This document shows, one piece after another, positions 27,450 to 28,109 of a stretch of 64,000 nucleotides of DNA. The position numbers and the translations under genes are program-made. The notes below the pieces were generated by a model. The model made no database searches and was not told the origin of the DNA. It saw only the letters and a list, made by a program, of their open reading frames with translations. The stretch comes from Diospyros lotus (taxonomy: Eukaryota; Streptophyta; Magnoliopsida; Ericales; Ebenaceae): positions 23,963,307-24,027,306 of the forward strand of contig NC_068343.1 of the NCBI RefSeq assembly GCF_014633365.1, given 5' to 3'. How positions within the stretch are numbered: position 1 is the stretch's first letter; each line of letters opens with the position of its first letter.

Positions 27450-28109
27450 ATGGAAGGCCAGTTAGTTCGTCGAATCAATACCATATGTGTACTTTGTGGC
27501 TCTCAACTTGGGAGCGATATTTGTTATGCACTTGCAGCGAGCGAACTTGGTAAAAAATTAGGAGAGAAAAAAATTAATTTGGTATATGGAGGGGGAAGTC
27601 GTGGATTGAATGGTTATGTTTCACAAGCTGTACATCTTGGAAATTCATCTGTGGTAGGTATAATGCCAATCCCTTTAGCTGAACCACATATTTCCGGGAT
27701 TACACGCGGTCAACTTATAGAAACGACTTCTATGTCTGAGCGCATGGCTTGTAAGATTTATCAGTCAGATGCCTTCATTGCTTTACCAGGAGGTTTTGGA
27801 ACACTTGAAGAAATCTTTTGTATAATCTCCTGGGCCAAGAGTAATCTCCATACCAAACCTATTGGACTTTTAAATGTTAACCATTTTTTCGATGGGTTAC
27901 TCTCTTTTCTTGATCAGGCTGTGGACCAACAGTTCATTTCTCGTTCAGCAAGAAAGATTCTCATTTCTGCATCCACCATTGATAAGCTGCTAGAGAAATT
28001 ACATGCTTATGTTCCACAGTACGATCCTTATGAGCCTCGGATAGACTGGTCTAAGGCAATTAGTAACAAGCGCCAAAGGGGTCCGATTAATTTAGATTTA
28101 TCACTGTGA
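27450..28109 (+). CDS. LOG-like: LONELY GUY-type cytokinin riboside 5'-monophosphate phosphoribohydrolase, retrotransposon-borne, intact frame
   Basis: 219 residues, close to the usual plant LOG length, with no intron although host LOG genes normally have several. LOG enzymes cut ribose 5-phosphate from cytokinin nucleotides to give free active cytokinins in the cytosol. Visible landmarks: CVLCGS near the N terminus, YGGGS (46-50), SQAVH, Arg98, PGGFGTLEE (113-121) with the catalytic-type Glu121, and a long match to the family in KPIGLLNV and LLSFLDQAV. Departures: Met99 where the family usually has Lys (RK pair), and GLNG where GLMG is usual. The C terminus ends in LDLSL, an LxLxL pattern. 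Start Met 27450 aligns with the host LOG start and precedes the first strand. A and B differ at about nine residues here. Fold and family are secure; activity and expression are not shown. Being part of a nested transposon it may well be silenced. Confidence 0.9.
   Translation: MEGQLVRRINTICVLCGSQLGSDICYALAASELGKKLGEKKINLVYGGGSRGLNGYVSQAVHLGNSSVVGIMPIPLAEPHISGITRGQLIETTSMSERMACKIYQSDAFIALPGGFGTLEEIFCIISWAKSNLHTKPIGLLNVNHFFDGLLSFLDQAVDQQFISRSARKILISASTIDKLLEKLHAYVPQYDPYEPRIDWSKAISNKRQRGPINLDLSL

What the first reader, a model, noticed from the sequence alone, without database searches (positions are those of the whole stretch)
27450..28109. A retrotransposon family carrying a complete LOG cytokinin-activation gene
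Seen: in two copies of an Athila-like element (A 14847-15506, B 27450-28109) the space between pol and the 3' LTR holds a full LOG domain. In B the frame is open for 219 residues with YGGGS, Arg98 and PGGFGTLEE/Glu121 at the usual spacing. It has no introns, unlike host LOG genes. Known: LOG makes active cytokinin in one step. Inference: a spliced host LOG mRNA was taken up into the element RNA and has since been copied with it. The two copies differ at about nine residues, so the domain has not simply decayed. A mobile, LTR-driven cytokinin gene would be unusual.
Basis: partly seen in the sequence, partly recalled or inferred. Interest (0 to 1): 0.88.

Follow-up and report, generated by a model that had tools for sequence, protein, structure and literature searches.

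The report
Retrotransposon carrying viral-type and cytokinin genes
A family of plant jumping genes carries two extra genes, one resembling an RNA-virus protein that counters plant defences and one resembling the enzyme that switches on the growth hormone cytokinin, and both look kept by selection, so the element may act on its host rather than just copy itself.

Summary
(1) The ORF upstream (26737-27282) is a homologue of the cysteine-rich nucleic-acid-binding proteins (NABP) of carla- and related viruses, several of which suppress RNA silencing. (2) It is not local: 527 NABP relatives, NABP+LOG gene models in Orobanche, Citrus and Rhamnella, and NABP right behind integrase in another plant element that lacks LOG there. 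(3) Element-type LOGs form one clade and mostly end in a basic stretch plus LxLxL (88 of 113; host-type 0 of 8), like an EAR motif; some gene models lost catalytic residues yet keep that tail. Between copies, LOG and NABP show purifying selection. A LOG-type domain in Citrus and Populus Gypsy elements is already in print; my searches showed no report of the NABP, the pairing or the tail. Best reading: an accessory module, silencing suppressor plus EAR-tailed LOG, acting on the host. Its function is inferred, not shown; expression and genome copy number could not be tested.

The parts
18164..31983 (+). Element B, complete LTR retrotransposon with TSD GGCAA (18159-18163 and 31984-31988)
18164..20224 (+). 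5' LTR of B
20230..20247 (+). Primer binding site TGGCGCCGTTGCCGGGGA (tRNA-Asp type; that this is Athila's type is recalled)
20345..22054 (+). gag ORF of B (Retrotrans_gag E 3.7e-18), closed by an in-frame stop
22085..23344 (+). protease ORF of B (Asp_protease_2 E 2.1e-7)
23345..25846 (+). RT-RNaseH-integrase ORF of B
26737..27282 (+). NABP: 181-aa carlavirus-type cysteine-rich nucleic-acid-binding protein, ends in UAG
27199..27345 (+). Block conserved at nucleotide level across the NABP stop codon; function unknown
27079..27140 (+). Predicted hairpin inside NABP, related to the two hairpins behind LOG
27450..28109 (+). LOG: 219-aa cytokinin riboside monophosphate phosphoribohydrolase-type protein with basic + LDLSL tail
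28127..28169 (+). Hairpin copy 1 behind LOG
28274..28316 (+). Hairpin copy 2 behind LOG
29903..29915 (+). Polypurine tract of B
29916..31983 (+). 3' LTR of B
5718..39728 (+). Element A with TSD ATACG (5713-5717 and 39729-39733), split by a CACTA-type element that holds B
14133..14675 (+). NABP of A; its stop codon is lost (TAT)
14847..15506 (+). LOG of A, stop at codon 88
17296..37889 (.). CACTA-type transposon inserted in A (3-bp TSD AGC), interrupted by B

Best explanation
This is an Athila-type LTR retrotransposon of a eudicot, probably a Diospyros. It belongs to a widespread group of elements that keep accessory genes between integrase and the 3' LTR. Gene 1 (NABP) is a homologue of the cysteine-rich nucleic-acid-binding proteins of carla- and related viruses; it most likely counters RNA silencing and/or changes host transcription in the nucleus (inferred from the family). 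Gene 2 is a LOG enzyme, most simply captured once from a host LOG as spliced mRNA, that gained a basic stretch and a terminal LxLxL; the tail most likely takes it to the nucleus and recruits a TOPLESS-type co-repressor (inferred), while most sampled copies probably still make active cytokinin. Together the two would protect element RNA and push the cell towards a dividing, defence-damped state in which new copies can reach the germ line. Shown: gene content, position, two independent insertions, homology, wide distribution, purifying selection, tail conservation. Inferred: expression, catalysis, silencing suppression, TOPLESS binding, benefit to the element.
For: Two insertions with separate TSDs carry the same module. 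NABP passes Pfam's cut-offs for Viral_NABP and Carla_C4; of 24 relatives that I picked, 22 match Carla_C4 and 21 Viral_NABP at E 0.01. 527 NABP relatives; all 120 listed carry PF01623. 18 of the 120 listed rows join NABP and LOG-type domains (Orobanche 13, Citrus 4, Rhamnella 1). L001 has integrase then NABP; P0266 (Rhamnella) joins an integrase end, and P0255 (Populus) protease plus an integrase end, to NABP. One LOG clade, SH-aLRT 100. Arg98 and Glu121 both kept in 106 of 113 element-type rows; LxLxL end in 88 of 113 vs 0 of 8 host-type, in 19 of 25 clusters at 70% identity. dN/dS A vs B: LOG 0.29, NABP 0.44, RT-INT 0.27; NABP codons 1-113 B vs L001 0.17. Viral proteins of this family as silencing suppressors: PMC12172455, passages only.
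Against: No expression data, no enzyme, silencing or TOPLESS assay, no genome copy count (genome search did not complete). Most proteins compared are unnamed and were not shown to lie in an element; 'element-type' is my label from motif and tree. B's gag-pol frame has three in-frame stops, so B is probably not autonomous. The host-type sample is small (8 in the tail count, one of which, P0229, ends before the tail region would begin; 9 in the tree), and the tree is a quick one without bootstraps and with a long stem. The Xanthoceras rows at the base of the clade lack LxLxL. L001 has NABP with no LOG. The viral fold search gave nothing at E 0.001. The LxLxL is a motif match only: L.L.L patterns also occur in 30 of 121 NABPs.
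Confidence: 0.6

Rival explanations
1. Selfish cytokinin gene: LOG acts only as an enzyme. Element-driven LOG raises active cytokinin in the expressing cell, so that it divides or stays meristematic; the tail only helps location or stability, and NABP is a separate matter.
For: Arg98 and Glu121 kept in 106 of 113 element-type rows and in B; LOG dN/dS 0.29.
Against: The tail is kept in some Orobanche and Citrus gene models that lost Arg98, or Gly115 and Glu121; a purely catalytic role does not predict a conserved basic + LxLxL end.
Confidence: 0.2
2. EAR scaffold: the LOG domain is now mainly a dimeric carrier of the LxLxL tail, which recruits TOPLESS and represses host genes; enzyme activity is incidental.
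For: 6 of 10 Orobanche models without Arg98 and 2 Citrus models without Glu121 still end in LxLxL; leucines at the end 75-85% conserved.
Against: In most lineages sampled the catalytic residues are conserved (106 of 113), which a pure scaffold would not need. The Orobanche and Citrus rows are annotated gene models, not independent lineages.
Confidence: 0.15
3. Passenger genes: NABP and LOG were picked up by chance and carried along, decaying in each copy.
For: A has a stop in LOG and lost the NABP stop; A and B are both broken in gag-pol; protein databases favour open frames.
Against: dN/dS 0.29 and 0.44 between A and B, 0.17 for NABP codons 1-113 between B and L001; conserved cysteines, basic stretch, catalytic residues and tail over many relatives.
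Confidence: 0.05

Closest known systems
YgdH (LOG-type) domain in Gypsy LTR retrotransposons of Citrus sinensis, C. clementina and Populus trichocarpa (PMC9289625, citing Steinbauerova 2011)
   Same: A LOG-type domain in plant Gypsy elements; the Citrus and Populus LOGs found here are probably the same thing
   Different: Listed there as a domain hit; section 12, which I read, says nothing of an NABP, a tail or catalytic residues. Steinbauerova 2011 is not held and was not read
Cysteine-rich nucleic-acid-binding proteins of carla- and related plant viruses (Pfam Carla_C4, Viral_NABP)
   Same: Basic stretch followed by a Cys-rich finger; above Pfam cut-offs
   Different: Here in an LTR retrotransposon, 181 aa, the profile matching only about residues 39-119; no activity tested
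Plant LOG cytokinin riboside 5'-monophosphate phosphoribohydrolases
   Same: Profile family and catalytic motif; B's LOG is 46-59% identical to 23 of 26 aligned relatives, the two host-type ones (47%) included
   Different: Own clade; basic + LxLxL tail; inside an element
AlkB/2-ODD domain of Phalaenopsis Gypsy elements (PMC9289625, abstract and section 12)
   Same: Gypsy element with an added gene that may counter host surveillance
   Different: Different gene, host and proposed action
Viral SF1 helicase captured by insect retrotransposons (PMC6338049, part 1 of 4 read)
   Same: RNA-virus gene with some silencing-suppressor activity inside retrotransposons
   Different: Insects, helicase, fused to element proteins

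Membership tests
LOG phosphoribohydrolase | Profile match to the LOG/Lysine_decarbox family | tested here: met
   PF03641 E 3.8e-33, 114.9 bits against a cut-off of 27
LOG phosphoribohydrolase | Catalytic Arg and PGGxGTxxE with Glu | tested here: met
   Arg98 and Glu121 in B; their catalytic role is recalled
LOG phosphoribohydrolase | Activity on cytokinin nucleotides | not testable with these tools
   needs an enzyme assay
Viral cysteine-rich NABP (Carla_C4/Viral_NABP) | Profile match above curated cut-off | tested here: met
   B: 35.1 bits vs 23 and 23.4 vs 20.9. L001: 34.2 vs 23, but Carla_C4 19.8 vs 20.9, just below
Viral cysteine-rich NABP (Carla_C4/Viral_NABP) | Basic stretch and Cys-rich finger | tested here: met
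   Cys84, 87, 92, 96 in 113, 118, 120, 116 of 121; K74, R77, K79 in 116, 115, 114 of 121
Viral cysteine-rich NABP (Carla_C4/Viral_NABP) | Fold match to viral members | tested here: inconclusive
   Model pLDDT 71.1; none of 28 rows at E 0.001, best 0.16; 10 of the top 11 rows are such plant-virus proteins
Viral cysteine-rich NABP (Carla_C4/Viral_NABP) | Silencing suppression or nuclear action | not testable with these tools
   needs an assay
Athila lineage of Ty3/gypsy | LTRs, gag, protease, RT-RNaseH-integrase order, PBS, PPT, 5-bp TSD | tested here: met
   this makes it Ty3/gypsy, not yet Athila
Athila lineage of Ty3/gypsy | tRNA-Asp-type PBS | tested here: met
   TGGCGCCGTTGCCGGGGA; that this is tRNA-Asp and Athila-typical is recalled
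Athila lineage of Ty3/gypsy | Place in an RT tree with reference lineages | not tested
   no reference set at hand
EAR-motif (TOPLESS-recruiting) protein | LxLxL motif, conserved | tested here: met
   88 of 113 element-type ends, 0 of 8 host-type; B ends LDLSL; the meaning of the motif is recalled
EAR-motif (TOPLESS-recruiting) protein | Binding to TOPLESS and repression | not testable with these tools
   needs an interaction assay

The most novel reading that the evidence does not exclude
A lineage of plant retrotransposons has assembled a virus-like two-gene host-manipulation kit: a flexivirus-type silencing suppressor or transcription regulator, and a LOG enzyme turned into a nuclear, TOPLESS-recruiting effector, with a conserved RNA block at their junction. 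It would be an endogenous agent that reprograms hormone and defence state to favour its own copying, and the same gene pool may have exchanged NABP with flexiviruses, in either direction.
Probability: 0.3. Interest if true: 0.92.

Novelty: new variant of a known kind. Interest (0 to 1): 0.76.

Why it matters
Plant LTR elements with extra ORFs are known, but what those ORFs do is open in most cases. Here the two extra genes have recognisable relatives with testable actions: silencing suppression for NABP, cytokinin activation and co-repressor recruitment for LOG. Natural copies with and without catalytic residues, and an element with NABP alone, form a ready comparison series. It would link a gene known from RNA viruses to retrotransposons in many eudicots, and it warns that some proteins annotated as host LOGs (for example the Diospyros lotus entry P0123, 97% identical to the element's LOG) are probably transposon genes.

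Tried and rejected
A host LOG gene merely hit by transposons: rejected, since two insertions with different TSDs carry the same module in the same place. A and B as a tandem sharing the middle LTR: my first idea, rejected by the TSDs and the CACTA ends. Overlapping reading frame as cause of the synonymous conservation: I first thought one search excluded it; a recheck showed one antisense frame of 45 codons, without ATG in B and L001, open over the block in B, A and L001. Its translations differ between B and L001 at 10 of 45 residues (my count), so antisense coding looks unlikely but is not excluded. NABP model from 24 sequences: poor (pLDDT 56.7), not used; from 103 sequences 71.1, used for one search. 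Viral contigs: the NABP protein, its alignment and one DNA pattern gave no relative; a second pattern hit L002, which encodes no NABP or LOG relative. Rfam: no match in B. Shared contig lengths between NABP and LOG hits (my note) were dropped as evidence: two of them are too short to hold both genes. Readthrough of the NABP stop: the peptide behind the UAG recurs in P0059, P0095, P0244 and P0250 (Gossypium), with W, Q, Y and E where B has the stop (placed by eye), but nucleotide conservation explains this equally well, so it is left open. Literature: all 10 searches used; I saw no report of a carlavirus-type NABP in a retrotransposon or of an EAR tail on a LOG in the listings or in the parts of six papers that I read; subscription papers are not held. 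Genome copy count: not possible.

Full report
WHAT IS THERE. The LOG frame at 27450-28109 is real: 219 residues without a stop, Pfam Lysine_decarbox E 3.8e-33, closest solved chains the Arabidopsis proteins At2g37210 and At5g11950 (that these are LOG3 and LOG8 is recalled). YGGGS, Arg98, PGGFGTLEE and Glu121 are in place. Copy A at 14847-15506 has one stop at codon 88. A and B differ in LOG by 9 synonymous and 9 nonsynonymous changes plus that stop.

THE ELEMENTS. Self-BLAST showed four related LTRs. Their ends (TGATTAG...GCAGCCA), a PBS TGGCGCCGTTGCCGGGGA just behind each 5' LTR and a PPT AAGTTGGGGGGTA just before each 3' LTR settle the anatomy. B is 18164-31983 with TSD GGCAA. A is 5718-39728 with TSD ATACG; it is split by a CACTA-type element (17296-37889, 3-bp TSD AGC) in which B sits. 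So two separate insertions of the family carry the cassette. The LTR pairs differ by K80 0.0188 in A and 0.0083 in B, in the order that nesting demands; LTRs of A against those of B differ by 0.039-0.046. B has gag, protease and RT-RNaseH-integrase in one frame, broken by in-frame stops at 22052, 22082 and 23342. A has stops of its own in gag (2), protease (3) and pol (3), plus gaps. The PBS is of the tRNA-Asp type used by Athila elements (recalled); I did not place the RT in a tree of lineages. The host is probably a Diospyros: the best LOG match is a Diospyros lotus protein at 97%.

THE SECOND GENE. The ORF before LOG, 26737-27282, matches Viral_NABP (E 1.8e-8, 35.1 bits against a cut-off of 23) and Carla_C4 (E 5.7e-5, 23.4 against 20.9), over about residues 39-119. 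Of 24 relatives that I picked, 22 match Carla_C4 and 21 Viral_NABP at E 0.01. Four cysteines are conserved in 113, 118, 120 and 116 of 121 proteins, and the basic stretch before them in 110-116 of 121 per residue, except R80 in 96. A moderate model (pLDDT 71.1) found no viral structure at E 0.001 among 28 rows; yet 10 of the 11 best rows (E 0.16 to 2.6) are proteins of this kind from plant viruses, nine of them named nucleic-acid- or RNA-binding protein or silencing suppressor, one '15kDa protein'. I take this as consistent, not as proof. Viral proteins of this kind are silencing suppressors and pathogenicity factors with a nuclear signal and a zinc finger (PMC12172455, passages seen); [quoted passage not shown] the paper is not held).

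HOW WIDE IT IS. 527 relatives of NABP were found at E 0.01 among 583 candidates; the 120 listed all carry PF01623, with names from Populus, Orobanche, Xanthoceras, Acer and Rhamnella. A search with A's own open NABP-spacer-LOG frame returned 212 proteins; among the 120 listed, 18 gene models join NABP and LOG-type domains (Orobanche 13, Citrus 4, Rhamnella 1), and NABP also appears in Gossypium. P0266 (Rhamnella) begins with an integrase end (70% identical to L001's), and P0255 (Populus euphratica) has protease sequence 64% identical to B's plus a short integrase end before NABP. L001, a 3.3-kb contig filed under a bacterial MAG but plainly plant retroelement DNA, has integrase (rve E 2.4e-16), then NABP (Viral_NABP 34.2 bits against 23; Carla_C4 19.8, just under its cut-off), then a PPT-like site; no LOG match lies in its about 1 kb behind NABP. 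So NABP occurs without LOG next to it in at least one element.

LOG OF THE ELEMENTS. The LOG search found 7848 relatives; 120 are listed. In a tree of 60 LOGs, all 51 element-type rows form one clade (SH-aLRT 100), nearest to a Papaver LOG and LOG7-named host proteins. It is a quick tree with 9 host-type rows and a long stem, so 'one capture' is the simplest reading, not proof. Of 113 element-type rows among the 121 examined (8 host-type set aside by motif and name), 106 keep both Arg98 and Glu121. 88 of 113 end exactly in LxLxL, each with at least three K/R in the last 16 residues; 3 more come close; 22 lack it, among them 10 Xanthoceras rows and several truncated ones. 0 of 8 host-type rows have it, one of them (P0229) ending before the tail region. 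Clustered at 70% identity, 19 of 25 clusters hold the ending. In rows longer than 205 residues the four leucines are 75, 83, 85 and 83% conserved and the residues between them 77, 54 and 34%. This looks like an EAR motif, which recruits TOPLESS co-repressors (recalled). Among the 18 fused models, 10 Orobanche ones have N or S in place of Arg98, and 6 of those 10 still end in LxLxL; 2 Citrus models keep Arg98 but have D for Gly115 and A for Glu121, and keep the tail. Two other Orobanche models keep the catalytic motif and have a weaker tail. These are annotated gene models of related copies, not independent lineages; still, in two plant groups the tail has outlived part of the active site.

SELECTION. 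Between A and B, dN/dS is 0.29 in LOG (Fisher p 0.01), 0.44 in NABP (p 0.05), 0.27 in RT-INT, 0.33 in protease and 0.59 in gag. Between B and L001, NABP gives 0.26 overall and 0.17 in codons 1-113 (dS 1.49); in pol dS is saturated. Databases of predicted proteins favour open frames, so the number of open relatives is weak evidence; the dN/dS values do not have that fault, but rest on one pair each.

AN UNEXPLAINED BLOCK. In NABP codons 155-178, 20 of 20 same-amino-acid codons are identical between B and L001, against 40 of 77 in codons 1-113 (Fisher p 1.8e-5); dS there is 0.067. No 24-codon window in pol exceeds 0.72. From the UAG onward, 59 of 66 bases are identical. One antisense frame of 45 codons is open over the block in B, A and L001, without ATG in B and L001 and with 10 of 45 residues different between B and L001, so antisense coding looks unlikely but is not excluded. 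Read on in frame, the stretch gives a peptide found in four database proteins that lack the stop. It holds a donor-like GAT|GTGAGC, with an acceptor-like TTTTCAG before LOG. RNA element, splice control or UAG readthrough all remain possible. A predicted hairpin inside NABP has two related copies behind LOG (z-scores -1.75, -2.40 and -2.05, so modest).

HOW IT PROBABLY WORKS. I commit to an accessory module that acts on the host: NABP shields element RNA from silencing or changes transcription; LOG raises active cytokinin and, through its tail, brings a co-repressor to the nucleus; the result is a dividing, less defended cell, where new copies can be inherited. Gene content, mobility, homology, spread and selection are shown here; expression, activities and benefit are inferred.

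WHAT IS NEW. A YgdH (LOG-type) domain in Gypsy elements of Citrus and Populus is already in print (PMC9289625: abstract, section 12 and passages seen; it cites Steinbauerova 2011, not held). Reviews and surveys of extra ORFs that I saw in part (PMC7264820 part 1 of 3; passages of PMC6317226, and of PMC11963269) mention no NABP in what I read. I found no report of a carlavirus-type NABP in retrotransposons, of the NABP-LOG pairing, or of the tail, in ten searches of the held library; subscription papers are outside it. Captured genes in LTR elements are a known kind; this is a new and striking variant.

Noticed in passing
window 42899-52742 (-): A second, related gypsy element on the minus strand (LTRs 42899-44433 and 51208-52742, 95.7% identical); its pol pieces are 55-70% identical to B's. 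No NABP or LOG match in it.
   Followed up: partly
window 17296-37889: CACTA-type transposon inserted in A and hosting B, giving a relative order of three insertions.
   Followed up: yes
window 27199-27345: Nucleotide-level conservation across the NABP stop codon, stronger than in any 24-codon window of the compared part of pol.
   Followed up: partly
window 27201-27335 (-): An antisense frame of 45 codons, open at matching places in B, A and L001, without ATG in B and L001.
   Followed up: partly
window 28127-28169 and 28274-28316: Two hairpins behind LOG that look like shortened copies of a segment inside the NABP gene, with an A-rich run between them.
   Followed up: partly
window 26560-26736: TATA-like TATAAGAG (26590) and TGTATAAGG (26608) and a pyrimidine-rich acceptor-like site before NABP: possible internal promoter or spliced message (by eye; positions).
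   Followed up: no
L001 1-3330: A contig filed as a Candidatus Nomurabacteria MAG carries plant-type retrotransposon DNA: contamination in a public bacterial genome.
   Followed up: yes
window 61748-63865: Dense short direct and inverted repeats in AT-rich DNA near the end of the window.
   Followed up: no
P0123 (database): A Diospyros lotus protein annotated as host LOGL10 is 97% identical to the element's LOG, so probably a transposon gene in a gene set.
   Followed up: no
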